The notes under the pieces were generated by a model. The model did not search any database and was not told where the DNA came from. It saw only the letters and a list, made by a program, of their open reading frames with translations. A DNA stretch of 64,000 bases from Urechis unicinctus (Eukaryota; Annelida; Polychaeta; Xenopneusta; Urechidae), in contig CM067357.1 of NCBI GenBank assembly GCA_034190875.2, positions 15,277,327 through 15,341,326 on the forward strand, in the 5' to 3' direction. Made by a program: the position numbers and the translations under genes. Shown piece by piece: positions 1,194-57,857 of this stretch; positions within the stretch are counted from its first letter, which is position 1; each line of letters begins with the position of its first letter.

Positions 1194-1490
1194 AGCGGAG
1201 TGGTCCTTGCAAGGGCCATATCTGCAAGACACCACTCTGACCCGGATTTCACCTAGACGAGAGGCTGTAATGGCTTGGTCCAGTCAACCGGCTGGTGGTG
1301 ACATGCCCTGGGATAATTGCATTTTTATCTTTTTCCATCATCCACTTGTTTGTCCCCTTTTTTCGTTTATCCTAGAAGGCGGCTTCTTAATCAGGTCAAA
1401 CTTATCTATCAATCTTTCTAGGCGCCATATAACACATACGTGTTGGTGTGCCGTTAAACCCTATTCTCACTCACTCACTCACTCACTACC
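1194..1490 (+). mobile_element. SINE copy, 5'-truncated
   Basis: It starts inside the family body (GAGCGGAGTGGTCCTTGC), runs through the GGATTTCACCTAGACGAGAG block and the AGAAGGCGGCTTCTTAATCA block, and ends in the shared 3' stem-loop (GGCGCC...AACAC...GTGTT...GTGCC) followed by CCCTATTCTCAC and a (TCAC)n tail. The first ~120 bases of the full-length copy at 17977-18384 are missing. Confidence 0.85.
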
Positions 1491-1592: not shown

Positions 1593-1645
1593 CAAAAAAC
1601 CCATTACCTCACTTAGCCCTTTTGTCATAGATAAAGGAATCGAGG

Positions 1646-2580
1646 GTTGACTGAAGTCCCAAAAAATATCAGAAGACTTCCTTGTCGAAGTGGACCGACC
1701 CAGCCACGCGAGATGCCTATTAAAATCAACGCTGCATGCGGGGGTTCCAACAGGGGTCACCCCTCACAGAACCCTTAACACCGAAAGAGGAGTCATAAGA
1801 TGCAATAAATTATAAGATTGTGAAACTTCGGAAATAGTTGAGGCTTTAAGGTCCCAAAAATTTACTGATGCGAAAAAAAGATAATAATTAATCGCAATGG
1901 GATTCGGGGGAATGGTTATCCTGACCTTTGATAGCACGAAATAGTCAAACGCTATCAAGGTCGGACACATGAATGTCTCCGTGGAGCCCTACATCCCGAA
2001 CCCATTGCGGTGCTTCAAGTGCCAACGTTACGGCCATGGTAACTCAACCTGCAAAAGGACAGCTGCATGCGCAAAGTGTGGACAGGAGGGCCACAAAGAG
2101 TACGATTGCCAGCAGGCCACAAAGTGCATCAATTGCGCAGGGGCCATCCAGCACTCTCTTGGTTGTGTCCTACATGGATCAAGGAGAAGCAAATCCAAGC
2201 GATCCGACACACCGAGACATCTCGTTCCCTGCGGCACGCAAGATAGTGGAGGCACAACAGGGCACCTAACCCTGTTATGCTAGCGCTGTCAAAACGGCCA
2301 CTGTGTCATTCGACACCCAGACCGACTATAGTGGCCAAATGGCAGCGCCCAACCAACGAGATTGGCCTCTGATGTGCCAAAACCTGCTACCACTACCATG
2401 AAGGCTAGAGACATATCTACACAATGCAGTCACCCTGTTCATTCAACTTTAAATAATTAATCTTCTGTACCAAACAAGAAAAGTGAAATTTCCAATGCTA
2501 AAATTTAAAGTAAAACTACATAGACACTGACAATGTCCGTCTTTCCTTTAAATCCAGATCTGCCCTAAACAGCCTCATTC
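1646..2580 (+). pseudogene. LINE ORF1 (Gag-like, CCHC zinc knuckles) pseudogene
   Basis: This is the sense-strand equivalent of the ORF1 at 40399-41644. Matching blocks are the HRTLNT segment (about 1763-1785), NVSVEPYIPNPLRCFKCQRY near 1970-2030, and zinc knuckles CFKCQRYGHGNSTC and CAKCGQEGHKEYDC. The end of ORF1 (the block around 2530-2570) is also present. Such ORF1 proteins bind element RNA in the ribonucleoprotein particle. In this copy several frameshifts and stops (for example TAA in the block near 1800) break the frame, so only a 104-residue piece around the knuckles stays open. It is followed by ORF2 debris of the same family, as expected for one ancient insertion in plus orientation. 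Confidence 0.8.
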
Positions 2581-3631: not shown

Positions 3632-3928
3632 ATGGTTTGCTGTATTCCGAAAGGAGAAATTTGTTTGCGTGTGAAAAACATAATGTCTATCGCTGAAGTT
3701 CAATGCTTATCTTTGTACCCATAATATGTTCCGAACAAATAAGCAGTTGTCTACTTCTGTATGGTCCCCATTGATCGTACAGTAAACGTGGTATCCAGAA
3801 TTTTGTTTAATTGTTAGAGGTAATTTCGCTCTTTGGGAAAAGAAGTGTGACCCACTGAAAGTTTTTATATGTTTTGGCGCCCGAATGCAAAAATGCATAT
3901 ATGGCTCTTTTTATCTATCCTAATCCAG

Positions 3929-5422
<1,494 letters not shown>

Positions 5423-5727
5423 TGTGACATTTGTGGAAAGCCTATATCTACAGGGAGCCGTCTTATATAACATATGAGGACATTGTTGAAAAACCATACA
5501 AATTTGACAGAAAGACGCACAAACAGGACTAATTGATTCGATAGTGATGAAGACATCTTTACTTTTGTCTGAGATGTTACTATATTAAAGTGTCGTAGAG
5601 CGTAGCATCTGTTTCCATGTTAACTTTTTTGCGGTGGGTCTGACATATGAACGGTAGAAAAGCGTGATGGACAATAATCTATAGCACTCATTGACACAGT
5701 ATAAAGGCTGAAGGCATCAAAATATAC

Positions 5728-17554: not shown

Positions 17555-17976
17555 TGTTATGTATATATATTTGTGTAATTGATAATACTGTCTGGTGGCA
17601 ACTGGGTATCGGACGGCACCACAAGTAGCTCCTCCTTTACAAAGCCACAGAGTGGTCCATCCAACAAAATATCATAATGTCTGTTATCTTTTCGCGTGGT
17701 TTTGATCCTAAACTTTCATTTGATCGATGTGGCTAATGGCTAACCGCCATGCATGGCGGGCACATGACGTTTTAATTGCTCATCGAGTCAGTAGAACTGT
17801 TCTTTACGTCATATGCGTAGTTTCCTGAATCCACTGAAAAGAACACAGCTAATTCACAAACGGGTTTTTTTTGACACAGCTTTGCACAATATATTGTATG
17901 TGTCGCGGGCGCCTGGCACAGGCCGCCAACACAGACACCCCATACTCCGTTTGGAACAACAAGAATCTAGCCCCCG

Positions 17977-18384
17977 AGTCCCCCTGGGGGTCTGGGGGTA
18001 GAATAGGCCCACTGTTTCTCCCGCATGTCGTAAGAGGCGACTAACAGGGGGCAACCTGTTGGCCGTGGGTTGCGACTCGTGTCAGTGGACAATGGGATCC
18101 AGTGGAGCGGTCCTTTTGAGGGCCGTATCTGCAACACACTACTCTGGCCCGGATTTCGCCTAGACGAGAGGCTGGAATGGCCTAGTCCAGTCAATCGGCT
18201 GGTGGTGACTTGCCCTTGGATACTATTTGCATTTTTATCTTTTTCAGCATCTTCCACTTTTATGTCCCTCTTTTTTCCATTTATCTTAGAATGCGGCTGC
18301 TTAATCAGGTCAAACTTATCTATTTCTAGGCGCCATATAACACATACGTGTTGGTGTGCCGTTAAACCCTATTCTCACTCACTC
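17977..18384 (+). mobile_element. Full-length SINE with 12-bp target-site duplication
   Basis: The element starts AGTCCCCCTGGGGGTCTGGG, contains the hairpin GTCGTAAGAGGCGAC near 18020-18040, a box-B-like GGTTGCGACTC near 18067, the GGATTTCGCCTAGACGAGAG block, and the 3' stem-loop with CCCTATTCTCACTCACTC. It is flanked by ATCTAGCCCCCG at 17965-17976 and 18385-18396, a direct mark of target-primed reverse transcription. At about 408 bases it is the reference copy for the family in this window. Confidence 0.9.
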
Positions 18385-18396
18385 ATCTAGCCCCCG

Positions 18397-27640: not shown

Positions 27641-28903
27641 TATCTTCATACGTCGTCCATTAATCTATCTCCCTCATACGTGCCCAAGCTTTACAGCCCT
27701 CATCATCATTTTCTTCACCTAACCAACACTTGGCCTGCCGTTGTCAATGATGCCAAGATGTTGACTGGTCCTTATAAGGATTGACTAGGGTCTTCATCCT
27801 GCCTTTGTCTTTCGTCTAACAGTAGGGATGGTCCTTAACGCTGCTTATATACACGAATAAAGGATAGCTCCATAATAATCCACGGTGACGTCGGTATGCT
27901 AAGCATAGTTATCGTCAATGAATTACAGTCTTCATATGCAGCTCTATATCAGCAAGTAAACCATTAAGTTGACCTCCATACGCGTCAATGTTGTTCGCTT
28001 CAATCATTGAAGAAAACCATGTCACGAAGCCTCTGCTTCAAAAGAGGTAAAAGCCACAAGTATATCACACTTGTTTCAACATCTCGTTACGTTGTAAGGT
28101 ACGTTTCCAATTCAGCATATTCTTCGTTAACTTAGTAACAATATGACTGTTAGAATCGACAACTTCACACTGTGAAATGTTTGTGGTTCAATAGTAAAGG
28201 TCGATTCAATATATGTAGTTTCTTATTTTAATAGAAGCATACTGATTCGTTCTGTAGATGTAATTCCTGGTTCAATAGCAAGAGTAACAAGATTGTGAGG
28301 AAAAGACGATTCATACTGTTACCATGATCTGGATCTCAAATGTCAAAGCATCAGTCAAGTTCAGTTACAGACCTATTCTCACCTACCGTCTGTCTTCATC
28401 ATAGATCAAGGTAATCAATGATTTCAAATGAATTTCATCAGTAAGGGATATCATCAGGTCGTTCATGAACGAAATATAACGCTGGAAATTAAAGGTGTTC
28501 AACTCAATTACCTCGAATTCATTTGTTAGTGTTGATCCATTTAAATTCAGTGACGGACGAGGAGACTTCATTTCGTCTGTTATTGACGACTGTGTTGCAG
28601 CTGAAAAAATTCTTCATTTCCTGGAAATTGTCCTCATGCTTTTATCACATGTAAATGTATAGCGTGCATTCTAGATTTCCGTTAATTTAACTTTTAACAT
28701 GAACCCTTGACAGCTGTGGAATTGAGAAGCTAACCCATTTCGTGACATCCTCACAGCTGATAAACACGCATACATAGACATTCATGCTAATAAGACCACC
28801 CATACTTCCTTGTTCAATTGTGGAATAATGCATAGCAATAAGCTACTAACTTCACTAACTTTATACTCTATTTAAGTCCTGTAATAAGTAACCATGTGAA
28901 GCG
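27641..28903. other. Non-coding stretch
   Basis: No gene supported; the B duplication begins at its right end. Confidence 0.45.
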
Positions 28904-29202
28904 TATATTTTGATGCCATCAGCCTTTATACTGTGATAATGAGTGATAGAGTTTATTGCCCATCACGTTTTTCTACCGTTCATATGTCAGACCCACCGCA
29001 AAAAGTTTAACATGGAAACAGATGATACGACACTTTTATATAGTAACATTTCTGACAAACATAAGATATCTTCATCACTATCGAATCAATTAGTCCTCTT
29101 TGTGCGTCTTTCTGTAAAATTTGTATGGTTTTTAAACAATGTGTCCTCATATGTTATATAAGACGGCTCCATGTAGATTATAGGCTTTCCACAAATGTCA
29201 CA

Positions 29203-30699
29203 TTAACGAGGTTTTTCACCAGTATGCGTTCTCATATGTTCTTTAACATTACTTCCACGATTGAAAGACTTCCCATAAACATCACATTTGTAAGGTTTGT
29301 CGCCGGTATGCATTTTCATATGTCGTCCAAGATGGCCTCCGTGAATGAAAGACTTTCCGCAGATGTCACATGTGTACGGCCTTTCACCCGTATGCGTTCT
29401 TGTATGTGTTTTTAGGCTGCTCATTTGCGTGTACGTTTTTCCGCAGATATCACATTTATATGGCTTGTCACCTGTGTGCGTCCTCGTGTGTCTTCTAAAA
29501 TGGCTTCCCTGAATAAAAGACTTGCCACAGATGTCACATGTGTACGGTTTTTCACCAGTATGCGTTCTCGTATGAACTTTTAGGTTGCTCACTACAATGA
29601 ACGACTTTCCACAAATATCACATTTATATGGTTTTTCACCAGTGTGCTGTTTAGTATGTCTTTTAAGGACGTTCACGTGAGTGAACGACCTCCCACAGAT
29701 ATCACATTTATACGGTTTTTCACCAGTGTGCGTTCAGGTATGTGTTTTTAGGGCGCTAATTTGAATGAATGCCTTTCCACAGACAACACATTTATACGGT
29801 TTTTCACCAGTGTGCGTTCTCCTATGAATCTTTAGATGGCTTCCATGGTTGAAAGACTTTCCACAAATGTCACATTTGTAAGGCTTTTCACCGGCATGTA
29901 TTCTCAGATGTCGGTCAAGATGGCTTCCATGAACGAAAGACTGTCCACAAATGTCACATGTGTACGGTTTATCACAAGAATGCTTTCTCGTATGTTTTCT
30001 TAGGTTACTCCCGTCAGCGAACGACTTTCCACAGTTATCACACCTATATGGTTTGTCACCAGTGTGCGTTCTCATATGTTTCTTAAGATTGTTTCTACGA
30101 TTGAAACACTTCCCACAAATGTCACATTTGCACGCCTGGCCTCTGGAATTCGCTATCTTATGATTTGTTGGATTGTTCCCGTAAGTGAAGGCCGTCCCAA
30201 ATATGACACATTGGATCCCCCATATGTGCGTCGTCTCGGAGACCATCGTACGATTTCCAGCAACACAATGTATATTATCGTGCACATCAAAAGTTCTTTG
30301 CTTCTCTCGCACATGTCCATGAATATTCATTTCCCTATCACCGATCCGATTTGAGCTGTCCTTATTCATTTCACATCCTTGTTCATAGGCATAATTCTCT
30401 ACATGCTTCTCGAGCGCGCCAGACTTGATGACGATGGCACCATTGGCTCCTAATTCACAAGGAATATTGCCAGAAATGTGAACAGGCGATGACCCGTCTG
30501 AGTTGCTATGATCAATACACACTCTTTTATAATCCTGAAGCAATGTAGATTTGTCCGAGAATAAGTTATCACTGACATCATCAGGGTCCTCCAGTTTTAT
30601 CATGGCTTTGACGTCTTCCATACTCGTGTATTCATTTCCGTCTGCCAGTAATGACGATGTGTTGGACATTCCCTGTAAAACAGGTTCATGAATCAATGT
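29203..30699 (-). pseudogene. C2H2 zinc-finger gene, copy B: one frame with a single TGA
   Basis: After the acceptor CTTTCCTAATCCAG (exon start 30699) one frame runs to 29203, about 499 codons, broken only by TGA at 29736-29734, where the finger should read HTRTHTG. It encodes an acidic N-terminal region of about 180 residues ([20 protein letters not shown] ... [16 protein letters not shown]) and about 11 C2H2 fingers joined by HTGEKPY linkers. The last finger has lost its second cysteine (CDVYGKSF). KRAB, SCAN or BTB domains are not visible. The TGA is the CpG-transition product of CGA, so it could be a recent mutation, a polymorphism or a sequencing error. If so the gene would give a DNA-binding regulator; if fixed, a truncated five-finger product. 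A degenerate further finger lies past the shared TAA. An upstream exon with the start codon is expected. Confidence 0.8.
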
Positions 30700-30783
30700 C
30701 TGGATTAGGAAAGATAAAAAAAGTCATATATGCATTTCTACATTTGGACGCCAAAACATATATAAAATATCAGTGGGTCACAC

Positions 30784-32705: not shown

Positions 32706-32983
32706 CTGTTCAGGCTGCTAAGGTAAGTATAGAGTTTAACGGCACATCATCACTTATGTGTTATATGGTGCCAACAAAGGTAAAAATATAAGATAAGATC
32801 GTCCTGATCAAGCAGCCACCTTCTGGGATAAATTGAAAAAAAAGAGTGGATGATGATGAAAAAGATAACAATGCAAACAATATCCTAGGGCAAGTCACCA
32901 CCAGCCAATTGACTGGACCAGGCCATCCCAGCCTAGCATAGGCGAAATCCGGGCCAAAGTAGTGTGTTGCAGACATGACCGTC
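32706..32983 (-). mobile_element. SINE copy, 5'-truncated
   Basis: The 3' tail (GGTAAGTATAGAGTTTAACG on plus) begins at 32706; the body continues through CTTCTGGGATAAATTG and GGCGAAATCCGGGCCAAAGT. It stops at about 32983 before the leader portion. Confidence 0.85.
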
Positions 32984-33045
32984 ACAAGGACGATTCCATC
33001 ATGACACGGGATGCTAGAGAAAAAAAAATTGGTGCTTACAGAGTC

Positions 33046-33924
33046 AGCATGGTGTTTACCGAGGAGCGAGTGTTGTCCGCCTATGGAGAAGTTAAGAAGC
33101 AGTATTGTTTCAACTACGACTTGAGGCCAAAACAGCTGGAATGCTTGACTAGCGTGATAAACCGCCAGCACACACTCGCAGTGCTACCCACGGGCTATGG
33201 CAAAAGTGACATTTATTCAGTTGGTTTTAGACGTCCTGTGCCATTTTGCTTTGGTAGTAATGCCACTCGTAAGTCTAATGACCGACATGGCATCAAAGTA
33301 CGGAGACAGGGGTGTGAAAGTATGCCCTATAAGCAGACGGGCCGAAATGAAGAATCATCAGCTTGTTGGTCTGGCAGAAGGATTGTTCTCCATTCTCTTG
33401 ATCTCACCAGAAGCACTGACGTTAATGGAAAAGTGGAGGAAGCTATTCTTGGAATCTGACCAGTACATATCAGGACTTTGTCAGGTGGCAGATCCCATCT
33501 ACTTATACAATGGTGAGTTCGAACTGCTTGTTAACAGTATTCTATAGCTGAAGCATATATCAGTACGTGAATTGACGCTTATATCAATTGGGTGTTTCTG
33601 TAGGGGGCAGAGCTTCCGCCCAGCCTACATCTATCTAGTTTTTTTGACCGTACTCCCTTATTGCTTACCACGGCCACCTGTACTGCCAACCTCAGGAGGG
33701 CTATGATAAAACTCCTCCACATTCCAAGTCTGAAGACTATCGCCGTTATCCCCGACAGGTATCTGAATGACGAAAAAAAGCGACTGTGAACTTGATATGT
33801 TTTATGATACACTTTGAGTAGTATTTGTTTCCGTCTTACTGTGTAGGCCAAACATCAAACTGCACTACCACCATGAGCATTGCCCAGGTCCCGATGACAG
33901 TATCGACTGGTATCTGAGACAAAG
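33046..33924 (+). pseudogene. RecQ-like DNA helicase remnant, spliced
   Basis: The first part reads YDLRPKQLECLTSVINRQHT and AVLPTGYGKS (33178-33207), a Walker A motif in the RecQ style. In a shifted frame follow PLVSLMTDMASKYGDRGVKV and LISPEAL. A second exon (33604-33758) has GQSFRPAY and TATCTANLRRAMIKLL. A third (33848-33924) joins across a good intron (CCCGACAG/GTATCT ... CTGTGTAG/GCC) to give VIPDRPNIKLHYHHEHCPG, the motif III to IV region. The Walker B DEAH segment is missing between the first two exons and two frameshifts are present. The third exon ends exactly where an antisense LINE tail begins. It could be a decayed host gene or part of a mobile element. Confidence 0.6.
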
Positions 33925-33947
33925 GTAAGGTAAGTATAGGGTTTAAC

Positions 33948-33979
33948 GGCACACCAACACTAGTGTGTTATATGGTGCC
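33948..33979 (-). ncRNA. Conserved 3' stem-loop of LINE/SINE RNA
   Basis: On the plus strand GGCAC-3 nt-AACAC-4 nt-GTGTT-5 nt-GTGCC, giving two stacked five-pair stems. The same arrangement ends SINE copies. In LINE H (43306-43337) the inner pair is G-C instead of A-T with identical spacing. It is probably the structure recognised by the element's reverse transcriptase. Confidence 0.6.
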
Positions 33980-34113
33980 TACTTAAGGAGGGGTACGAAA
34001 GGATAAGAAGTCAAGGTTTACAACCAACTAAACATTGCATTAATTAAATTGTATTAATTGAATTATATTAATTTGAACTATATTGAATTAATGAGAATTG
34101 TATGATCTAAAAT

Positions 34114-37100
34114 CTATAAAAAAAGTCCAATTTCTCTTATGAATCCAAGTATCTTGGATGGATTCACCCTTTCAAATAATTCTGAAAGGGTTTGAACCCG
34201 GAAGAAGCGATTTCGGATCAAAATCAAATCAGCACATTCAATGAGAATGTGCTTGACAGTATAGGCACATTGACAAGGAATACATTCAGGGATGGGCTCA
34301 TCCCTTAGTAGAAAGGCATGAGTTGTATAGGTGTGTCCTATACGAGCGCGAGCAAGAACGACCTCTTCTCTTCGGCTCTCTCTGCAGTTGTGTGGCCACT
34401 CCCCAAGTTGAGGCTGGATTTCGTAAAGTTTATTTGGAATGGATTCATCCCACTGGTCCTGCCATTTTTGTTTAAAAAGTTTAACGACCTGCGGTTTTAA
34501 GTCTGTAAAGGGAATCTTGGTTTCAGACACTGGCTCATGTAGGGCTTCCTTTGCAGTCCTATCGGCTCTTTCGTTGCCTGGGATACCTATGTGACTGGGT
34601 ACCCAGACAAACTCAACATTTTTTCCCAGCATGGATAAACGAGTAAGATTTTCTAAAATATCTACAACAATATGGCACGATAACAACTTATTCCCAATTG
34701 CCTCCAGGGCAGATAAAGAATCACTAAAAATTGTAAAATCCGCATTGGGATGGTGAGCAATAAGGCCCAATGCCATCCTTATTGCGGTAACTTCAGCTGT
34801 AAAAACAGATGCTGCACCAGGCAGTCTTTCCTTGTGGGTCTGAGGTCCGAACACGACTCCAGCGCCCACACGGTTTGCATCTTTGGATCCATCAGTATAA
34901 ATAAGTATCTTGTCTTTGTGATGTTCTTTTATTTCATGAAATTTCATCAAGAGGTCATTTGCATTTAATTTATCATATTTGGTAAGGGATGTGTCTATTG
35001 TTGGTGTGTTCAATTGCCAGGGGGTGGTGTTTCGGGAATTTTGTTTGGAGCAATAATGTCTAAATTATTGGATATGTTGTTTAGCGATTCTTGAATACGG
35101 ATGCCAAGAGGTGGTATGGCATTAGGTTTATTTTCATATATTACTTGGTATTTGGGATGGAAGATAATGTCATAGGCAGGGTGATCTGGATTGCTTTTTA
35201 TTTTAATTGCATATTGAAGGGCCAGTTTGTTTCTTCTTAGATGGATAGGCATTTCATTGGCTTCAGTGTGGAGGCTTTCAATGGGTGATGTTCGAAATGC
35301 CCCAAGGCAAATCCTCAGAGCCTGATTCTGGACTATGTCCAGTCGTTTTAGATACGATTTTCGAGCTGCACCGTAAACGATGCAGCCATAGTCAAGCTTT
35401 GATCTTATCAAGGACCGGTAGAGCCTGAGCAGGACCTGCCTGTCAGCTCCCCAGTCCAGCTTGGACACTACTTTAAGAAGATTCATTGCCTTGAGACATT
35501 TATTCCTGATGTAATTAATATGGGATTTAAAATTGAGTTTTGAATCAAATATGATACCTAAGAATTTGGTTTCTTCCACAACAGGGACGGGATTTTCATT
35601 GATGGTTAATTCTGGGTCAGGGTGAAGGCCCCTTCTTTGACAAAAATGTACACAAACTGTTTTTGTAGTGGGAAAATTTGAAACCATTTTCATCTGCCCA
35701 TTTCTGAATTTTGTTAAGGTTGATTTGTAGCTGGCGTTCTATGGTGGTCATACTGCTGGATCGGTAAGATATAAGGAATCGTCGTCTACATAAAGTGATT
35801 TTTCTATTTCAGGTTTAAGAACTTTTGTGATGCTATTGATCTTTAGGTTGAAAAGTGTGACCGAAAGAATGCTGCCCTGTGGGACCCCCATTTCCTGACC
35901 ATGTTGGTCCGAAAGTGATGTCCCAATTCTTACCTTAAAAAATCTATCATTTAAAAAATTTTGTATAAATAGTGGCATATTACCTCGAAGACCAGCTTCT
36001 TGTAGATCTTTTAAAATCCCATATTTCCATGTCGTGTCATATGCTTTCTCAAGATCGAAAAAAAACACAGACACGACATGGTCCCCCTTTAAAAATGCAT
36101 CCCTAATATAAGACTCTAACTTAACAAGGTTGTCTGTGGTACATCGGCCTTTTCTAAAGCCAGATTGATGTTCATTTATTATATTATTAATTTCCAAGTA
36201 CCACATAAGACGCTTGTTAACGATTCGCTCCATGGTTTTACAGAGACAGCTCGTGAGAGCGATGGGCCTGTAGCTCGACGGGTTGGTTGGGTCTTTTCCG
36301 GACTTTGGGAGAGGGATGATGGTAGCCTCTCTCCATGAGTCCGGGATATTCTCCACTGCTCCATATGTGATTGTATATGTCTAATAAGACATACAAGGAC
36401 TCTTCTGGAAGATGTTTAAGAAGTTGGTAATGAACATCGTCTGGTCCTACTGCAGTGTCCTTGCAGAGTTTCAAAGATTCTTTCAATTCTTCTAAAGTAA
36501 AAGGAACATTATAATTTTCTTCGTTGTTTGACCTAAAATTAAGTTTTGTTCTTTCAGTAATCTGTTTATGTCTTTGAAACTTTTCAGTATAATTAGCAGT
36601 GGAAGAATTCATGGTTATTGTATCCGCTATGATGTTAGATATTTCTTGTTTGTTTTTGACTTCATTACCATCTGGTGTTAGAAGGTAAGAAGAAGTGGAA
36701 GAGGTGTTTTTTCCACTTATTTTGCGGACCATTTCCCATGTCTTTTTGATTGATGTTCTCGAGTTTAATTTTGATATATAAGTTTTCCATGAATTCTTTT
36801 TATTCTTTTTACTTTCTTTAACAACCCGCCGAGCTCTCGCTCTCGCTGCCCTGAATGATGCCAGGTTTGCATGGGTTGGGTGAGTTTGGAATAACTTAAG
36901 GGCCCTTTTTCTGTGGTTGATGGCGTCCTGGCAGTCTTGATTAAACCATGGTTTTGGGATGCGCCTGGGCTTTGCCGAGGACTTCGGAATAGTTTTGGAG
37001 GCAATTTCAAGCAGTTTAGCACAAAATGTATCGATGTGTGTATCTCGCCCTTGCATCTTATCCCTGTGGATAGCCTCCCCACACAGAGATCCAAAGGAGG

Positions 37101-37810
37101 GCCAGTCTGCTTTATGCAGCTGCCACTTTGGAGGAGACTCTGGTGGTAACGGAGGGTTTAGGTCGATAAGAATGGGGAAGTGGTCACTTCCACAGGTATC
37201 ATCGACACCAACTTCCCATGCAAGGTCGAGAAACAAAGAAGGAGAAGAGAAAGAAAGATCTATTGCGGTGGGTGTGCCATAGCCTGGATGGATGTGTATG
37301 TATTTGAGCCGTCATTTAAAAGGCAGAGATTGTGAGAAATGAAGAAATCTTCTACAATTTGGCCTTTTCCATCATCATATGTATTGCCCCATAAAGAGTT
37401 GTGGGCATTAAAATCACCCATGAGGAGAACTGGCTCTGGCAACTGGGCCACAATGTTGTCCAGTTCTCCTCGTGTAAAATTTTGGCTTGGCGGTAAGTAA
37501 AGGGAGCAAAGTGTGATGGACTTATTTAAGGTTATATTTTTACTGCTACTGCTTGAAGGTTTGTATTGAGTTCTATTTCTTTCTGGGGAATAAAATCCTT
37601 GATTAAAATGGACGAGCCGCCAGAAGCTCGTTCCCCAGTGCCTCCAAATTTATGGTAAGATTTATAGCCTTTCAAGCTATATTTATTTTCTGCCTTCAGA
37701 AATGTTTCCTGAAGGCAGGCTGCAATACCATTATTTTTGTTGAGTAAAGTAATAAGTTCTTCATGATTATTCCGAAGTCCTCGGCAATTCCATTGTATAA
37801 TGCCCGCCAT
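34114..37810 (-). pseudogene. LINE A ORF2: APE endonuclease, reverse transcriptase, RNase H
   Basis: It starts MAGIIQWNCRGLRNNHEELI at 37810, with ATG overlapping the ORF1 stop as TAATG. The endonuclease has LLMGDFNAHNSLWG and CGSDHFPI (37451-37190). The linker carries KPWFNQDCQDAINHRKRALK. RT motifs are SSYRPIALTSCLCKTMERIV, HQSGFRKGRCTTDN, FFDLEKAYD, GVPQGSILS and YVDDDSLYL (36300-35750). RNase H (35013-34560) keeps YTDGSKD, FTAEVTAI, FSDSLSALEAI and SHxGxxGNERAD, including D41, E74, D98 and D151 counted from the ATG at 35013. A C-terminal CxxC-type block CIPCQCAYTVKHILIEC follows. The frame is broken near 37530, 37250, 36240, 35755, 35665 and 35012. In an active copy this protein nicks target DNA and copies the element RNA. 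Confidence 0.88.
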
Positions 37811-39049
37811 TACCTATCAGGGGGTTTGGCGGGACGTTTGCTGCCATGGTGGACCTCAGTCCCCATGGCATTCCTGGGGCCGCAGGTTCCCTGGGCCACT
37901 ACAGACCCAGGGTCCCGATTGGCCCCTGATGATGTGTGTCTGCCATGGGGGACCTCATCAGTCCCCATGGTAGACAATGGGCCATAGATGTTGGGCCCAA
38001 CAAAAGAATCTGGGTTCTGAGCCCTGGTGAGTTTTGATTTTACAGACCGTGGGAGTTTAGATTTTTCATTGTATTTGTTTGCTGTTATGTGTTCATTGAC
38101 TTTTGGGGTAGTGGGGGTGTTTGGTTTTGTTTGTTCCGTTGGGGGATTGCTGGCTTTGAAAGGGGGTTGTTTCGGAGGGTGGTTTTCTGTTTGTGTACTA
38201 ATAGATTTGGTTATTTTAGTAGGTGCTGCTGCAGTACTAGCATATGAAGGTCTGGAAGAAGTTGAATTTTGGCACTCTACTATTTTTCTCGCTTCAGGGA
38301 AAGAAAGTTTTTTGGGTGATATGTAGTGTTTGAATTTGTTTTTCGATTTGCCAAATGGAACAGCGTTTAGAGTATGCGGGATGAGCACCGGAGCAGTTTG
38401 CGCACTTGAATGGTGCTTTGCAATCCTGCTCCCCGTGCTCATCACCGCATTTGGGGCAGATTGGTGTTCTATTACATTTGGTTTTAAAATGGCCATATCT
38501 TTGACAGTTGTGGCATCTTAAAGGATTTGGAATGAATGGTTCAGTTTTGATGTTCAGGCCAGCTATTTTAATGTTGTTTGGAAGGTAAGGGGTGTTGAAA
38601 GTAAGGATGTGGGTGCCTGTGGGAACCCTTTCTCCATTTTTATTAATGAGCACTTTGGCTACTTCACTGACATTTTGATTTTTCAATTCCTCCAAAATCT
38701 CTTCTTCGCTGCAGTATTTGAGTTCGAAAGATTTTATAACACCCTTGATGGTATTAAGGGTTCGATGAGGGCTGAATTTTACATTGATATTTGCTAATTT
38801 GGTGGTCTGAAGAAGAAGTTTGGAATGAATTTGTTTTGATGTTTCGACAAGATAAAGCCCAGATCGCAAAAGTTTTAGAGTTTTGGGAGTGCCGGCAACA
38901 CCACAAATTCCTTTAAATAGAACAATGAATGAAACTTTCTCTAAACTCCCGTCGGTTCTTTCAAGCACAAGAAATCTTGGCCAGTTTTCAGTTTCAGTTT
39001 CATTTTCATCTAAATGCCTTCGTTTTTGGCCAGTATGAGAGGAAGACAT
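37810..39049 (-). pseudogene. LINE A ORF1: Gag-like RNA-binding protein with three zinc knuckles
   Basis: I place the start at MSSSHTGQKRRHLDENETET (39049) because the longer upstream frame is 5' UTR and the related LINE B starts at the matching point. An RRM-like central region (NWPRFLVLERTDG ... FSPHRTLNTIKGVIKSFELK) precedes CHNCQRYGHFKTKC, CPKCGDEHGEQDC and CANCSGAHPAYSKRC (about 38520-38390). A one-base change in the A-run near 38300 shifts the frame into KLSFPEARKIVECQ and a Pro/Thr-rich tail that ends TAA at 37812-37810, sharing its last A with the ORF2 ATG. Confidence 0.82.
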
Positions 39050-39235
39050 AGTAATACAACAATTCATCACCTGTGCTCCCCACCCGCCCCGGAGCCCAAT
39101 AAAGGGACATCTTAAAGATGCCAGGGCTACACAGGTGATATACTCGTCCCCCATAAAAAGTGATACAATACGTAACCCATAGAGCCCAGACACTGGCAAG
39201 GTGCTGAGCTCGTAGAGGCGCACCATAACACCCCT

Positions 39236-39613
39236 AATGGAATCCGATTGACCTGATTAAGCAGCCGCCTTCTGGGACTAGTGAAGCCAATGAAATGAGA
39301 AATGGTCCATGAAGTAAATGAATGTCATGAAGGAAGATGCCAAATGCATGTGATGGGTAGTCCCAGGGCACGACGCCACCAGCCGTTAGGAATGGGCCAG
39401 GCCAACCCACCCTCTCGTCTAGGCGAAATCCGGGCCAAAGTGGTGTGTTGCAGATATAGCCCTCGCAAGGACCGCTCCGCTCAACCACCAGGATCCCATC
39501 TTCCTCCGACACGAGTCGCAACCCACGGCCAACAGGTTGCCCCCTATTAGTCGCCTCTTACGACATGCAGGAGGATACAGTGGGCCTATTCTACCCCCGG
39601 ACCCACAGGGGGG
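39236..39613 (-). mobile_element. SINE-like 5' leader of LINE A
   Basis: It is nearly identical to the first ~340 bases of the SINE at 17977-18384, including CCCCCTGTGGGTCCGGGGGT, the GTCGTAAGAGGCGAC hairpin, GGATTTCGCCTAGACGAGAG and AGAAGGCGGCTGCTTAATCA. It then passes into LINE-specific 5' UTR (GGATTCCATTAGGGGTG) instead of the SINE 3' tail. LINE B has the same organisation. Confidence 0.85.
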
Positions 39614-39616
39614 CTG

Positions 39617-40409
39617 TAAAAAAAGGATACCGCATCTTCATCAATATTTTCTAAAGTATCTTTGTTGATAATGTCGCTGCACATAGAAGTAAAATTCGGC
39701 CAGTTGGCCTTATGGAGTTTCCATTTGAATACCCGCTCAGCGGGCATAGGCCTATTGATATTTAAAAATATTGGAAAGTGGTCACTTCCACACTGGTCCT
39801 GACCAACTTCCCAATCAAATTCCATCAAAAGAGATGGAGAGCAGAGGCTAAGGTCTATGGCAAAGAAAATCCGGTTCCAGGATGGAGATATGTTTTAGAT
39901 TTATTATTTAATATAGCAAGATCATTTTGTATGATGAAATTCTCTATCTTATGACCACTGTCGTTGGTGTCCTCACATCCCCATAAATCGCTGTGGGCAT
40001 TGAAATCGCCAAGCAGCAAAAGTGGGGATGGAAGTTGACTGATCAAATGATCAATGTCTCTCTGTAAAATCTTGTAGCTTAGTGGTAGGTACAGAGAGCA
40101 CAAAGTGATGGTTTTGTGGAGGGTAATACAAATGGCTATAGCCTGAAGAGGCGTGTCAAGAGGAATAGGTTCATGGGGAACACCGTGTTTAACAAGCACA
40201 GATGCCCCTCCCACAGCTCTTCCGTCTCTTTGTGATAAAATTGTTTTATTATACATGGTATACCCTCTCATTGACATTTGATCAGTCTCCTTCAAGAAAG
40301 TTTCCTGAAGGCTAACAGCAATAGGTTGATGGTCATACAAAAGAGATTTGAGTTCGTCATAGTTGGACCGAAATCCTCGACAGTTCCATTGGATGATGCT
40401 AGGTGACAT
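39617..40409 (-). pseudogene. LINE B ORF2: APE endonuclease domain, truncated
   Basis: It starts MSPSIIQWNCRGFRSNYDEL at 40409, overlapping the ORF1 end by 11 bases. The motifs are VSLQETFLKE, LLLGDFNAHSDLWG (catalytic Asp/Asn), and after a frameshift near 39860 WEVGQDQCGSDHFPIFLNIN (catalytic SDH). It is cut off at about 39617 after NIDEDAVSFF, before the RT. As in related elements, the endonuclease would nick target DNA to prime reverse transcription. Confidence 0.85.
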
Positions 40410-41644
40410 TGGGGGGAATGGTTGAAGCCCGAGGCTTCCGCCTTGGGCTGTTAGGGGCAGATGTGGGTTTAGAGGGAAGACGGACACTGTCAATGTCCAT
40501 CTCCTCTAGGCTGCCGTATTTATTATGCAATTTTATGGGATCCTTAGATCCCTTAGGAGGTCTATGAGTTTTTACTTCAGTTATTACTGTTTCATTTTTT
40601 TTTACTAGTCTCAGCGGGTTTTTTGTAAACAGTAGGATGGACAGGAGGACTGCACTGCGTTGACATATCTTTTGCCTTCTTGGTAGTAGTAGCAGGTTTT
40701 GGCACATCAATGGTCACCATTTTTGGCTGGGCGCTGCCATTTGGCCACGTGTAGTCGGTCTGGGTGTCGACTGACACTGTGGCCTTTTTGACAGCGCTAG
40801 CATAAGAGGGTTTGGTGCCCTGATGTGCCTCCACTATCTTTCGTGCCTCAGGGAACGAGATGTCTCTGGTGTGTTGGATCGTTTGGATTTTTTTTTCTTT
40901 GATCCATGTAGGACACAACCTAGAGAATGCTGGGTGGTCCCCTGAGCAATTGATATATTTGGTGGTCTGCCGGCAGTCATCTTCCCTATGGTCCTCCTGT
41001 CCACACTTCGCACATGCTGCAGTTCTTTTGCAGGTTGAATTACCATGGCCGTAACGTTGGCACTTGAAGCAGCGCAATGGGTTTGGGATGTAGGGGTCCA
41101 CGGAGACATTCAAGTATCCGACCTTGACAGCTTTAGGCAATTCAGAGCTGTCAAAGGTCAGGATAACCGTCCCCGTGGCTTGTCGAGTCCCATTGCGGTT
41201 CACTGTGATTTTTTTTGCATCGATTACCCTTTGTGGTTGTAATTCCTTAATTATTTCAGAGACCTCACATTCTTTTAAGTCGTAGCATCGAATTACTCCT
41301 CTTTTGGTGTTGAGGGTTCGGTGAGGGGTGACTTGAATGGGAATGCCCGCAAGAAATACTGATTTCAGTAGGCAACTCGCGTGGCTGGGTCGATCAACTT
41401 CAATAAGTAAGCAGCCAGATTGTATTTTTCTAATGTTTTTGGCGACACCAGCCAACCCCTCAATCCCTTTACTAATTGCAAAAGGACTTAGAGATGTCAA
41501 TGGTCTCTCCGAATCAGAAGAAGTTACAACCAAGAACCTTGGCCATGAGGAGTAAAGATCCTTGTCCGAGTCCGAGTCTGGGTCCGTGTCATTGGGTCTA
41601 TTCCGTTTGAAAGATAATCTTTCTTGAGTTTGTTTTTGAGCCAT
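40399..41644 (-). pseudogene. LINE B ORF1: Gag-like protein with zinc knuckles
   Basis: The start MAQKQTQERLSFKRNRPNDT (41644, context ATCATGG) is preferred over the longer frame. The RRM-like region (SSWPRFLVVTSSDS ... VTPHRTLNTKRGVIRCYDLK) is followed by CFKCQRYGHGNSTC and CAKCGQEDHREDDC. In the third knuckle the first cysteine is tyrosine (YINCSGDHPAFSRLC). FPEARKIVEAHQGTKPSYAS follows. A shift in the T-run near 40600 moves the C-terminal tail (VKTHRPPKGSKDPIKLHNKY) to another frame ending TAG at 40401-40399. Confidence 0.85.
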
Positions 41645-42137
41645 GATATTATGATAAAATTTCTTCACTGGTGCTCCCCACCCACCATGGAGCCCAACAT
41701 GGAGGCGTCAGCGGTGTGCGGCTCAACCAGCACACATGACGCCAGGGATACACCAGTGTAATACTCAAATTAATAGTAAAAAGTTCAAAGAGCTGTTCAC
41801 ACATCAACTCAATTGACCTGTTAAGCAGCCGCCAGGGATAAATGAAAAAGAAAAGGGAAAAAACCATGTGGATAAGAATGAATGACAAGAAGTGGAATGA
41901 AAAAGCAATAAGTAATGAAAACAAATATCCCATGGCATGTCACCACAAGCCGATTGACTGGACCAGGCAATTCCAGCCTCTCGCCTAGGTGAAATCCGGG
42001 CCAAAGTGGTGTGTTGCAGATATAGCCCTCGCAAGGACCTCTCCACTCAACCACCAGGATCCCATCTTCCACCGACACGAGTAGAAACCCACGGCAGAAG
42101 GATGCAGTGGACCTATTCTACCCCCAGACCCACAGGG

Positions 42138-42549
42138 GGGAAGGTAAGATAAGTATAGGGTTTAACGGCACACCAACACTAGTGTGTTATATGGTGACTA
42201 CTAAGGAGGGGTAAATACGAATACAAAAGGATAAGAAGAAGTCAAGGGTTAAAACAAACTAAACATTAAACCCATTAGTATTAATTGAATTATATGAATT
42301 GAATTAAATAAAATTTATCAGAATTGAATGATCTAAAATCTATAAAAAAAAGTCCAATTTCACCCTTTCAAACAATTCTGAAATGGTTTTAACCCAGAAG
42401 AAGCGATTTCGGTTCAAAATCAGAACAGCACATTCGATGAGAATGTGCTTGATGTTGTAGGTGCATTGACAATGAATGCATTCAGGGATGGGCTCATCCC
42501 TTAGTAGAAATGCATGAGTTGTATAGGCGTGTCCTATACGAACGGAAGC
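42138..42549 (-). mobile_element. LINE C: 3'-end fragment
   Basis: The 3' UTR with stem-loop and the end of ORF2 (RIGHAYTTHAFLLRDEPIPE, CIHCQCTYNIKHILIECAVL) are present. It is 5'-truncated at about 42549, typical of incomplete target-primed reverse transcription. It abuts the leader of LINE B. Confidence 0.85.
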
Positions 42550-47059: not shown

Positions 47060-47765
47060 CAGATTTACTTTGTGATGATATATGAGTGATCAAAGTACCC
47101 TGAAATTTAGGTAAAGCAAAATTAGAACCCATACACACAAATTATTGCCGGTGATTGCCTCCAGAGTCGACAGGTAATCAGAAAATACCACAAGACGCAT
47201 TTGACTTGATTGGGCAAAAAGGTGCTGTGCAATAGAAAGCTCCTCATTAAAAATTGATAATGGTAACCTCATATTAAAAGTGGTTTTGCCCATTAGGGCT
47301 GCAGCTCTAATCCTGTCGTCCTCTTTCATACCGTCTGTGTAAATGGCAGCACGATCTCAATATTTATCATTTAACTGGGATTCGGGCTGCTCTTGAGGAA
47401 ATGGATTTTACTTGGGCTAAAAACAATGCCAAATGTCGTATTTTGGGGGATCGACTTTAATCGAAGGGCATACTGTACGGCAACCTGCTCCCTTCGCACT
47501 CTAAGTGGAGCCACATTGGCTTCTACATGCAGACTTGTGATATGAGGTGATCTGAAGGCCCTGGGACAAAGCCTCAGATGCTGGGTTTTGAACCGTTTCC
47601 AATTGTTTTAAATAGGATGAACGGGAAGGACCATAGACAACCGTAATCCAATCTCGACCGCACAAGGGGCCGGTAAAGCCTCAAGAGGACTCGCTGGTCC
47701 CCTCCAAAACCAGTATTCAACAACATCTTCAAAAGTTGAAGGGTCCAGAAACTTTTTTCAATGCA
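47060..47765 (-). mobile_element. LINE F: decayed RT C-terminus and RNase H fragment
   Basis: 47760-47530 reads GGDQRVLLRLYRPLVRSRLD and YGCLW, the thumb region of LINE A's RT. 47329-47090 reads MKEDDRIRAAALMGKTTFNM and LVVFSDYLSTLEAI, a degenerate RNase H with its third Asp. Both ends are truncated and stops are frequent. The subfamily is more diverged than A-D. Confidence 0.75.
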
Positions 47766-48073
47766 GTTGAATGAGTGAGTATAGTGTTCAACGGCACATT
47801 AACACGTATGTGTTGTATCGCGCCTATAAATGTAAATGTGAAGAGATTAACCTGATTGAGCGCCTGCCTTCTAGGATAAAATGGAACAAAAAGAGGGAAA
47901 ACACATTGAAAACGATAATCCTAGGTCAAGTCGCCACCAGCCAATTGACCATATAAAATCCGGGACAGAGTGGTGTTTTGCAGATGTGGCCTTCACAAGG
48001 ACCACTCAGCTGACCCACCTGGATACTATTGTCCACCCACACAACCCACGGCCAACAGGTTGCCCCTTATTAT
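47766..48073 (-). mobile_element. SINE copy, 5'-truncated
   Basis: Tail GAGTATAGTGTTCAACGGCA at 47775, body with TTCTAGGATAAAATGGAAC, AATCCGGGACAGAGTGGTGT, and leader sequence to CGGCCAACAGGTTGCCCC (48073). It sits directly 5' of LINE F in the same orientation. Confidence 0.82.
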
Positions 48074-52125: not shown

Positions 52126-52366
52126 AGCCACCAGGCTGTTATAAAATGGAACAAATGTAGCCACTAGGCTGTTCAAAGATGAAACAAGTGAAGCCACTAG
52201 GCGGTTATCAAATGGCACAAATGAAGCCACTAGGCTGTTCAAAGACGGAACCAGTGTAGCCACTAGGCTGTCCAAACATGGAACAAGTGTAGCCACTAGG
52301 CGGTTATCAAATGAAACAAATGCAACCACTAGGCTGTTCTAAGATGGAACCAGTGTAGCTACTAGG
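52126..52366. repeat. 33-bp minisatellite, about 7 units
   Basis: Units of the type GCCACTAGGCTGTTCAAAGA + TGGAACAAGTGTA recur at 52127, 52160, 52193, 52226, 52259, 52292, 52325 and partly 52358. Because 33 is divisible by three, the minus strand stays open as an 11-residue repeat (SLVATLVPxxN), probably by chance. A related two-to-three-unit array is at 56779. Both arrays sit directly before a SINE tail. Confidence 0.88.
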
Positions 52367-52745
52367 TAAGGTAAGATAAGTATAGGTTTTAACGGCACAC
52401 CAACACTCATGTGTTATATGGTGCCAAGAAAGGTTAATAGATAATTTGACCTGATTAAGCAGCCGCCTTCTAGGATAAATGGAAAAAAGAGGGACATACA
52501 AGTGGATGATAATGACTGCCGATTGACTGGACCAGGCCATTCCAGCCTCTTGTCTAGACGAAATCCGGGCCCAAGTGGTGTGTTGCAGATATGGCCCTTG
52601 CGAGACCACTCCGCTCAACCATCAGGAACCCATTGTCCACTGACACGAGTCGCAACCCACGGCCAATAGGTTGCCCCCTATTAGTCGCCTGTTACGACAT
52701 GCAGGAAGATACAGTGGGCCTATTCTACCCCCGTACCCACAGTGG
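52367..52745 (-). mobile_element. SINE copy, near full length
   Basis: The tail (GTAAGGTAAGATAAGTATAG) starts at the end of the 33-bp minisatellite; the leader end (CCCCCGTACCCACAGTGGG) is at 52745. The hairpin region reads GTCGCCTGTTACGAC on the plus strand, with both stems kept. Confidence 0.88.
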
Positions 52746-53054
52746 GATAACAAAGAAACACAAAACGGGGCGAATTCCATTCGTGGAAAATTACGAATTA
52801 CCATTATTTTCTGCACTGAAGAGTCATTTGAGTGATAGTTTGATGCTCACAATACGCCCCACAATATCATGGACTATCATGATTTTGCAAGAATTGATTT
52901 AGCACTTTTTGCATGCTCTTCATATTATGAAAGAAATGCAAGTGCAATTATTTTTGTCTGGGAATGAAACTGATAAGAATTCTCATTCTTTTATTGTATC
53001 ATATGCATAATAGCTTGCATTACAATGTTGTAGTGAGCACTCTGAAAGAAGAAT
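52746..53054. other. Spacer
   Basis: Nothing recognisable. Confidence 0.4.
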
Positions 53055-53750: not shown

Positions 53751-53791
<41 letters not shown>

Positions 53792-53793: not shown

Positions 53794-53885
53794 TGCCAAT
53801 GTACAACCTGCTGTCAATGCCCAACCTGATGTTGGTGTCCATCCTGCTGTTGATGAGGCCATAGGGGATCAAGCGATGGAAGGTG

Positions 53886-54300
53886 AGGTAAGTATAGGAT
53901 TTAACGGCACACCAACACTAGTGTGATGTGGCGCCTACAAAGATGAATAGATCCGATTAACCCGATTAAGCAGTCGTCTTCTAAGACAAATGGAAAAAAG
54001 AGGGAGACACAATTGGATGATGATGAAAAATATAAAAATCAAAATATTATCCTATGGCAATTCACCTCCAGCCGATTGATTGGACCAGTTCATTTCAACC
54101 TCTCGTCTAGGTGAAATCCAGGCCAGAGAGCTCTATGTTGCAGACATGGCCCTCAAAAGGACCTCTCCACTAAGCAACCTAAATCCCAATTTTCATTGAC
54201 ACGAGTCGCAACTCATGGCCAAAAGGGTGCCCCCTATAAGTTGCCTCTTACGACATGTTTGGGTGTAAAATGGGCCTATTCATTTCACCTCCACAGGCGG
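53886..54300 (-). mobile_element. SINE copy, near full length, diverged
   Basis: Tail GTGAGGTAAGTATAGGATTT at 53886; leader end TTTCACCTCCACAGGCGG at 54300. The hairpin reads GTTGCCTCTTACGAC. The inner 3' stem has lost two bases (GTGATGTGGCGCC). Confidence 0.85.
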
Positions 54301-56870: not shown

Positions 56871-56877
56871 TGATAGT

Positions 56878-57260
56878 AAGGTAAATAGAGGGTTGAAGTA
56901 CACCAACACTTATGTGTTATAGGGTGCCTTAAAAGGTGAAAAGATACGGTTGACCTCATTAGGCAGCTGCCTTCTAGGATAAATGTTTAAAAGGAGAAAT
57001 AAACGCGAATGGAGATGAAAATATAACAATGCGAACAATCTTCCAGGGCGACAGTCCCAAGGCAAGCCAGCCGTTTGTCTTTGTGGAATCCTGGCTAAAG
57101 TTGTGTGTTGTAGACATGGCCCTTGCAAGGAACTCTCCACTCAACAACAAAGATCCGATTGCCCACAAACATGAGTTGCAACCCACGGCCAACAGGTTGC
57201 CCCCTATTAGTTGCCTCTTATGACATGCAGGAGGATATAGTGTTCCTATTCTACCCCGGG
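56878..57260 (-). mobile_element. SINE copy, near full length
   Basis: Tail AAGGTAAATAGAGGGTTGAA; body CTTCTAGGATAAATG; leader CAACCCACGGCCAACAGGTT and TTCTACCCCGGGAC at 57260. The central GGACCAGGCC block is replaced by AGTCCCAAGGCAAGCCAGCC, a subfamily difference. Confidence 0.85.
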
Positions 57261-57439
57261 ACATTTGTCATCAATTAACAGATGATTGGGAATGTCATTT
57301 AACACTTCATAAGATATCATAGCCTCACATGATATGTACTGCTATAGCATTTCTCACCTGACTGAGAACACATCACAACAGGGGAACATGTACTGATTTT
57401 GAAATATATTGCAGATGATTCAGGTACTAGCTAAACTAG
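57261..57439. other. Spacer
   Basis: Nothing recognisable. Confidence 0.4.
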
Positions 57440-57848
57440 TAAGTAAGTAAACATAGGGTTAAGCGGAAAAAGTAGCGCCTGTTAAGGCGAATAGTTAAGT
57501 TGGCCTGATTAAGCAGCTTTAATGATTAATACGAGATAAAACGGAAATCCATGTAGATGAAGTTGAACTAGAACAGATAGCAGAAAAGACAACAATGCAA
57601 ACGATTATCTTACGGCAAGACACAACCAGCCAACTGGTCCATGCCATCAGCCTCTCGTCTGGGGTAAATTGGGCCAATGTGGAGTGTTGCAGATATGGTT
57701 CTCACAAGGACCACTCTACTCATTCAAAAAGATCCCTTTGCCCCCCCCCCGACATGAGTCGTAACATATGGCCAATTGGTTTCCCCCTATAAGTCGCCTC
57801 TTTTAACACGCTGGAGAATAGTGTCCCATTCTATCACCGAACCCACAC
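57440..57848 (-). mobile_element. SINE copy, diverged
   Basis: Tail AGTAAGTAAACATAGGGTTA, body GCCTCTCGTCTGGGGTAAAT, leader TGAGTCGTAACATATGGCCA and GAACCCACACAGGG. It includes a run of ten C at about 57741. Its hairpin has lost the second stem (GTCGCCTCTTTTAAC). Confidence 0.78.
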
Positions 57849-57857
57849 AGGGCATAA

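What the first reader, a model, noticed from the sequence alone, without database searches (positions are those of the whole stretch)
17977..18384. SINE built from both ends of the resident LINE
The full-length SINE equals the LINE's 5' leader (as in 39236-39613 and 41810-42137) joined directly to the LINE's last ~60 bases (as in 33925-33985). So it is not a tRNA/5S-headed SINE that merely borrows a 3' tail. Either it is an internally deleted LINE, or the LINE captured the SINE body as its 5' UTR. Two LINE subfamilies (A, B) both carry the leader, which favours deletion from a LINE or an old capture. The 12-bp target duplication shows it moves as a unit.
Basis: partly seen in the sequence, partly recalled or inferred. 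Interest (0 to 1): 0.75.

Follow-up and report, generated by a model that had tools for sequence, protein, structure and literature searches.

The report
Miniature LINE missing its middle
A short jumping DNA repeat that looks like a SINE consists of the front leader and last few dozen bases of a larger jumping element in the same genome, so it is most likely a stripped-down copy moved by the larger element's enzymes: an uncommon but known kind of element.

Summary
17977-18384 is a full-length element with a 12-nt target duplication. It consists of the resident LINE's 5' leader (about 370 nt in LINE A) joined to the LINE's last ~60 nt. The leader is the LINE's true 5' end, not a SINE lying upstream: in 30/30 LINE A loci and 27/30 LINE B loci it starts within a few bases of the same position, mostly beside unrelated flanks. 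One full-length LINE A has a 13-nt target duplication outside the leader.
LINE A and B 5' UTRs stay colinear past the SINE junction. A 2.34-kb internally deleted LINE B with its own target duplication shows that such deletions arise and move. T5/T5/T6 runs and no A/B box pair above chance make Pol III unlikely. It is best called a SIDE (short internally deleted element), as described for R2/R1, Zenon/Persaeus and ingi/RIME.
The unexpected part is nt 1-108: the same in the SIDE consensus and LINE A and nearly so in LINE B, whose ORF1 protein is 46% identical to A's. Leader sites form a mosaic. This suggests a strongly constrained, perhaps exchanged, 5' cassette of untested function. Capture before the A/B split is not excluded.

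The parts
17977..18384 (+). full-length SIDE (the 'SINE' of the finding), copy S1
17965..17976 (.). 5' target site duplication ATCTAGCCCCCG
18385..18396 (.). 3' target site duplication ATCTAGCCCCCG
17979..18085 (+). 5' cassette (element nt 1-108), nearly invariant between SIDE, LINE A and LINE B
17979..18313 (+). part homologous to the LINE 5' leader
18327..18384 (+). part homologous to the LINE 3' end, with (ACTC)n terminus
39241..39613 (-). LINE A 5' leader; 39613 is the element's first base
34114..39226 (-). LINE A coding part: ORF1, then RVT_1 in 36356-35748 and RNase H in 35013-34114; frames broken in this copy; endonuclease only by DNA similarity to LINE B
33922..33985 (-). LINE A 3' tail ending in CTTAC repeats
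41810..42140 (-). LINE B 5' leader, with an internal deletion in this copy
40592..41668 (-). LINE B ORF1 (zinc-knuckle match just under the Pfam cut-off)
39855..40493 (-). LINE B endonuclease (Exo_endo_phos, Exo_endo_phos_2)
42141..42549 (-). 3' end of another LINE, abutting the 5' end of LINE B; part of a segmental duplication
52362..52747 (-). SIDE copy S3 with LINE-type CTTAC tail
53880..54281 (-). SIDE copy S2 (5' end uncertain); junction reads AATCGGAT as in LINE A
1194..1477 (+). SIDE copy S4, 5'-truncated
32723..32998 (-). SIDE copy S5, 5'-truncated
56877..57262 (-). old SIDE copy S6
57436..57852 (-). old SIDE copy S7
47765..48072 (-). old SIDE copy S8

Best explanation
The element is a SIDE: a non-autonomous retrotransposon made by loss of everything between about nt 370 of the 5' UTR and the last ~60 nt of a resident LINE of the endonuclease/reverse-transcriptase/RNase H type. 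Its RNA begins at the LINE's own +1 because it keeps the LINE's 5' cassette (nt 1-108), probably an internal Pol II promoter or another device that sets the 5' end. The LINE's reverse transcriptase recognises the shared 3' tail and inserts copies by target-primed reverse transcription, giving mostly 9-17 nt duplications. SHOWN: both ends shared with the LINE, near-fixed 5' terminus, target duplications, leader present in all sampled LINE A and B loci, internal T runs, a mobilised internally deleted LINE B. INFERRED: deletion direction, Pol II promoter role of the cassette, trans-mobilisation by LINE A/B protein.
For: The element is accounted for by LINE ends but for about 20 nt of uncertain origin at the junction: homology runs from LINE nt 1 to about CAGGTCAA, further (AATCGGAT) in copy S2, and resumes at about TAGGCACCATATAACACA. 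Leader at the LINE 5' terminus: 30/30 LINE A loci and 27/30 LINE B loci with the start present, the other 3 truncated inside it. LINE A L069 with 13-nt duplication outside the leader. A and B 5' UTRs align beyond the SIDE junction, with a pre-ORF1 block (42/57 A/B) that the SIDE lacks. L029: 2.34-kb LINE B deleted from just after ORF1 to a point past the RNase H domain, with 13-nt duplication. Target duplications of 11-14 nt in 6 of 7 young SIDE loci and 9-17 nt in 10 of 18 SIDEs of a survey. T5, T5 and T6 runs inside the young SIDEs and no A/B box pair beyond chance; no tRNA in the window, no Rfam match.
Against: The unrooted leader tree does not show the SIDE nested inside LINE leaders; SIDE copies span far more divergence than the LINE copies, which are young by selection. 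SIDE copies older than any sampled LINE copy exist, so capture before the A/B split cannot be excluded. No target duplication was found for the window's own LINE A or for S2, S3, S6, S7. The endonuclease was matched by Pfam only in LINE B and RT/RNase H only in LINE A. Promoter activity and trans-mobilisation were not tested.
Confidence: 0.8

Rival explanations
1. Capture: an older SINE with a LINE-like tail lost its tail and became the 5' UTR of the LINE ancestor, before LINE A and B split.
For: SIDE copies are numerous and some are much older than the LINE copies sampled (S6 and S7 are 71% and 67% identical to S1). The leader is far better conserved than the rest of the LINE, as a late addition would be.
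Against: No tRNA or Rfam head, no A/B box pair above chance and internal Pol III terminators, so no independent SINE identity. No tail remnant seen between leader and ORF1. No LINE without leader sequence among the 60 A/B loci cut out.
Confidence: 0.12
2. Cassette exchange: whatever the first event, the 5' ~200 nt is a module passed between LINE families and SIDEs by template switching or recombination, so present-day LINE A and B leaders are recent swaps.
For: A/B identity is 99% (nt 1-108) and 96% (109-205), then drops to 62% (206-330), while ORF1 is 46% identical in protein. In the A/B/SIDE comparison 11 of 12 informative sites at 111-176 group A with B, and 8 of 9 at 204-241 group B with the SIDE; fewer runs than shuffles, P = 0.023, 0.003 and 0.029 for three SIDE types.
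Against: Strong purifying selection on the cassette could give the same gradient: B against B3 (L097) also declines, more gradually (97, 96, 85, 83%). Faster change in LINE A past nt 200 could mimic the mosaic. The three run tests share sequences.
Confidence: 0.35
3. Ordinary Pol III SINE whose head is unrecognised.
For: SINE-like length, high copy number, target duplications. One exact A-box match at nt 127.
Against: T5/T5/T6 runs inside the young copies; no B box suitably placed after that A box, and paired weak boxes occur in 292 of 500 shuffles; 5' end identical to the LINE 5' end.
Confidence: 0.03
4. SINEs that by chance landed just upstream of two LINEs in this window.
For: None found.
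Against: The leader-LINE arrangement recurs at the 60 loci cut out, mostly with differing flanks.
Confidence: 0.01

Closest known systems
R2 and R2/R1 SIDEs of Drosophila (PMC3414825, passages)
   Same: 5' and 3' parts of LINEs joined with the middle deleted, not transcribed by Pol III, thought to use the parent's machinery; target duplications at the R1 site; old families
   Different: Those lie in 28S genes and carry a self-cleaving ribozyme at the 5' end; here insertions are dispersed and no ribozyme was recognised
Persaeus/Zenon SIDE of Lepidoptera (PMC6740152, abstract, passages, one section)
   Same: LINE 5' UTR plus 3' end, no tRNA/5S/7S head, no Pol III promoter
   Different: Partner is a CR1 LINE with a poly(A) tail and the element has a variable middle; here the partner has RNase H, the tail is (CTTAC)n or (ACTC)n, and only about 20 nt lie between the two parts
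TbRIME/ingi and NARTc/L1Tc of trypanosomes (PMC4748587, PMC4035085, passages)
   Same: Short element = truncated LINE; a 5' module (77 nt there, ~108 nt here) shared by long and short elements; L1Tc too has AP endonuclease, RT and RNase H
   Different: Pr77 is reported to be a Pol II promoter and HDV-like ribozyme; here neither activity is shown
HAL1-type ORF1-only LINE derivatives (recalled, no call)
   Same: L029 keeps 5' UTR, ORF1 and the 3' end without endonuclease, RT and RNase H domains
   Different: HAL1 derives from L1; L029 is a single copy seen here and keeps the end of ORF2

Membership tests
SIDE (short internally deleted element) | 5' and 3' ends both homologous to one resident LINE | tested here: met
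SIDE (short internally deleted element) | 5' part is the LINE's true 5' end | tested here: met
   30/30 LINE A loci; 27/30 LINE B loci with the start present
SIDE (short internally deleted element) | no tRNA/5S/7SL head, no Pol III promoter | tested here: met
   (one lone exact A box at nt 127, no B box to match)
SIDE (short internally deleted element) | target duplications of the kind the partner LINE makes | tested here: met
   LINE A L069 13 nt; SIDEs 11-14 nt in 6 of 7 and 9-17 nt in 10 of 18
SIDE (short internally deleted element) | moved in trans by the partner LINE | not testable with these tools
   needs a retrotransposition assay
Pol III SINE | A and B boxes | tested here: not met
   no pair beyond chance
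Pol III SINE | no internal T4+ terminators | tested here: not met
   T6 run in 7 of 7 young loci, with T4-T5 runs before it
LINE 5' end with HDV-like ribozyme | HDV-like double pseudoknot at +1 | tested here: inconclusive
   Rfam 0 hits; own strict descriptor 0 hits, no positive control run
I-superfamily LINE (partner) | AP endonuclease, RT and RNase H domains | tested here: met
   Pfam: RT and RNase H in LINE A, endonuclease in LINE B; endonuclease of LINE A only by DNA similarity to B; RT/RNase H of LINE B not seen
I-superfamily LINE (partner) | CCHC zinc knuckles in ORF1 | tested here: inconclusive
   zf-CCHC 20.6 bits against a cut-off of 20.8 in window LINE B; no match in L069 or L070 ORF1; CCHC spacing visible in the alignment
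I-superfamily LINE (partner) | RT phylogeny inside the superfamily | not tested
   no named reference RTs at hand; the listed relatives are nearly all unnamed

The most novel reading that the evidence does not exclude
The first ~108-200 nt is a transferable 5' cassette that sets the RNA start. It is kept almost unchanged and exchanged between LINE families whose proteins are only about half identical and their SIDE: an animal counterpart of the trypanosome Pr77 module.
Probability: 0.35. Interest if true: 0.62.

Novelty: new member of a known kind. Interest (0 to 1): 0.42.

Why it matters
One of the papers seen (PMC6740152) calls SIDEs rare, naming fruit flies, a mosquito and a trypanosome besides its own moths and butterflies. 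The present one is abundant, has a clear partner LINE, a deletion derivative of intermediate size (L029), and a 5' module that is almost invariant where the partner LINEs' proteins have diverged to about half identity. The module's role (promoter, processing or translation) can be tested directly. Repeat annotation that assumes Pol III heads would misfile such elements.

Tried and rejected
Rejected: SINE inserted upstream of the LINE; tRNA head and Pol III; known Rfam RNA at the leader. HDV-like fold: own descriptor gave 0 hits on the consensus, while 12 of 60 shuffles had at least one; no positive control was run, so this is weak. Consensus RNA structure: the 49 distinct module rows are too alike and RNAalifold gave only a weak structure. 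Leader tree: unrooted, bootstrap not settled, direction not decided; rows dropped beforehand were leader hits under 170 nt, all but 15 of the LINE A hits (plus two LINE A rows), and the duplicate loci L001, L009, L034, L035, L039 and L056. Relatives elsewhere: one exact 18-nt leader motif absent from viral contigs and four motif spellings absent from the paper library; the LINE RT segment had no confirmed relative in viral contigs; the SIDE has no match in the plasmid collection at that sensitivity. Protein relatives of the LINE exist (2081 of 7994 scored, best 69% identity; 120 listed, nearly all unnamed), but their DNA could not be looked at. 'LINE C' (window 1601-2525) proved not to be a clean family: of 9 loci fetched, L091-L095 share one composite arrangement, L096 has no recognisable 5' end of its own, and L097-L099 are B-like LINEs with the leader.

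Full report
WHAT IS THERE. The stretch 17977-18384 is a complete mobile element flanked by ATCTAGCCCCCG at 17965-17976 and 18385-18396. LINE A runs on the minus strand from 39613 to 33922; Pfam sees RT and RNase H in it, and its endonuclease part is recognised only by DNA similarity to LINE B. LINE B runs from 42140 with ORF1 and a Pfam-matched endonuclease and is cut off where LINE A begins.

GENOME-WIDE TEST. The window lies in a held 1.19-Gb genome. I searched it with ORF1-side segments that begin just past the leader, so leader presence was not selected for. LINE A: 221 first-look candidates, 40 scored, 30 cut out as loci. LINE B: 315 candidates, 40 scored, 30 cut out (one locus in each set is the window's own). 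The leader lies upstream in 30/30 LINE A loci. All 30 LINE B loci keep leader sequence: 27 with the 5' start present, 3 (L021, L030, L036) truncated inside it. Not all are independent: L009-L011 are segmental duplicates, L016 and L017 share a flank, L034 and L035 are units of one tandem array. The start lies within four bases of the same position (CCCCC[C]TGTGGG; the first one to three letters vary), while the 5' flanks otherwise differ from locus to locus. LINE A copy L069, full-length but with broken frames, has TATTAAACATGCG on both sides, so leader and LINE moved as one unit. These samples are the best matches and therefore young copies. An exact 39-nt LINE A leader/ORF1-side junction occurs 98 times in the genome, with 0 for the reversed control.

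THE SHORT ELEMENT. Six young genome copies (L003-L008) gave a 423-nt consensus, to which they are 98-99% identical. Target duplications of 11-14 nt were found in 6 of 7 young loci (L002-L008; L002 is a duplicate of the window copy with the same flanks); L004 had none. Of the other 9 items in that call, the window copy S1, LINE A L069 and deleted LINE B L029 had 12-13 nt, L008's second copy had 7 nt, and S2, S3, S6, S7 and the window's LINE A had none. Of 240 mispaired controls 225 gave nothing, 12 gave 6 nt, one 7 nt and two 12 nt; the two at 12 nt are presumably S1 against its duplicate L002. The 57-nt core occurs 504 times exactly, the reversed control 0 times; only the first places are listed. 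Of those I fetched 20 on C1 and C3, leaving out places already known: 18 carry leader and tail (consensus match reaching nt 400 or beyond), 1 is LINE B, 1 is a SIDE truncated at both ends; 10 of the 18 show a 9-17 nt duplication by a simple exact test, without mispaired control in that call. Some SIDEs end in (ACTC)n, others in (CTTAC)n like the LINEs. A second survey, biased because its query was LINE A's own first 110 nt and only the 40 best of 982 candidates were scored, gave among 20 fetched places 15 LINE A, 3 LINE B-type, 1 SIDE (matching to nt 306) and 1 fragment.

DELETION OR CAPTURE. For deletion: apart from about 20 nt at the junction the SIDE is LINE-derived, and S2 keeps LINE A letters (AATCGGAT) there. 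LINE A and B 5' UTRs remain colinear past the junction and share a second block before ORF1 that the SIDE lacks. L029 is a LINE B deleted from just after ORF1 to a point past the RNase H domain, keeping the end of ORF2 and the 3' UTR, with its own 13-nt duplication, so such deletions do arise and move. Three more B-like loci (L097-L099 of 9 fetched; L097 and L098 share flanks) also carry the leader; the other six cannot be judged at their own 5' end. Against, or undecided: the unrooted leader tree of 71 rows groups LINE A leaders (100/100) and LINE B-type leaders (97/94), while SIDE copies are older and more diverse; its bootstrap had not settled and LINE sampling favours young copies, so it gives no direction. 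Capture before the A/B split is not excluded.

TRANSCRIPTION. The consensus has T4 at 146, T5 at 264 and 272, and T6 at 303. The T6 is in 7 of 7 young loci; L006 has T4 in place of the first T5. Old window copies vary: S6 has only T4 runs. One exact A-box match lies at nt 127, but no B box fits it; the weak A/B pairs found elsewhere are no better than chance, since 292 of 500 single-base shuffles have one. ARAGORN found no tRNA in the window and Rfam nothing. I therefore infer Pol II or read-through RNA, as argued for other SIDEs. No experiment is available here.

THE 5' CASSETTE. LINE A (L069) against LINE B (L070): 107/108 identical at nt 1-108, 93/97 at 109-205, then 69/112, 89/150, 42/57 in the pre-ORF1 block and 64/141 at the ORF1 start. 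Proteins: ORF1 46% over 322 columns, endonuclease-RT stretch 52% over 284. The SIDE consensus equals LINE A over nt 1-108. Informative sites are clustered: at 111-176, 11 of 12 have A=B; at 204-241, 8 of 9 have B=SIDE; run tests against shuffles give 0.023, 0.003 and 0.029 for three SIDE types that share data. Strong constraint or exchange of the cassette would explain this; B against B3 declines more gradually, which constraint alone could give. A test for an HDV-like fold was negative but had no positive control.

LITERATURE. I saw passages, not whole papers. PMC3414825 (passages) names SIDEs in Drosophila, with R2 ribozyme 5' ends, and says they are not SINEs because Pol III does not transcribe them. 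PMC6740152 (abstract, passages, one section) describes Persaeus/Zenon in Lepidoptera and calls SIDEs rare, naming fruit flies, Anopheles gambiae and Trypanosoma brucei. PMC4035085 and PMC4748587 (passages) describe ingi/RIME, L1Tc/NARTc and the 77-nt Pr77 module as promoter and ribozyme; PMC4035085 states that SINEs can be 'products of LINE ORF deletion'. PMC11203168 and PMC10294476 (passages) were looked at on a recalled hunch that the host is a mollusc; the host was not identified. No paper holding this leader motif was found (four spellings); that says little, since papers rarely print such sequences.

VERDICT. A SIDE: a new member of a known, uncommon kind, with an unusually conserved 5' module whose role is the interesting open point.

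Noticed in passing
genome contig C16; window = C16:15277327-15341326: 54 of 98 exact LINE A leader/ORF1-side junctions lie on C16, which is 5% of the assembly, 50 of them at 0.5-2.6, 8.8-17.7 and 25-33 Mb: perhaps a poorly recombining or sex chromosome.
   Followed up: no
window 42141-42549 and LINE B; L009, L010, L011, L063: LINE tail plus LINE B 5' end recurs with about 1 kb or more of shared sequence: segmental duplications on C16. Window SIDE S1 also has a 100% copy with the same flanks (L002).
   Followed up: partly
L070: Tandem ~3.2-kb units, two of them holding the 5' ~2.6 kb of LINE B.
   Followed up: no
L016, L017: LINE B copies whose leader is reduced to about nt 1-110; in L016 it is joined directly to the pre-ORF1 block; both share the same 5' flank.
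   Followed up: partly
L029 (C13:75677220): Internally deleted 2.34-kb LINE B (5' UTR, ORF1, end of ORF2, 3' UTR) with 13-nt duplication.
   Followed up: yes
L073: A LINE A cut off at about nt 469 is followed directly by the 5' end of another LINE A.
   Followed up: no
window 3845-5727 and 28903-30783: Inverted duplicate of a C2H2 zinc-finger gene region, 90.8% identical.
   Followed up: no
window 52126-52366 and 53751-53791: A 33/99-bp tandem array next to SIDE S3 and an (AACT)n run about 90 bp from SIDE S2.
   Followed up: no
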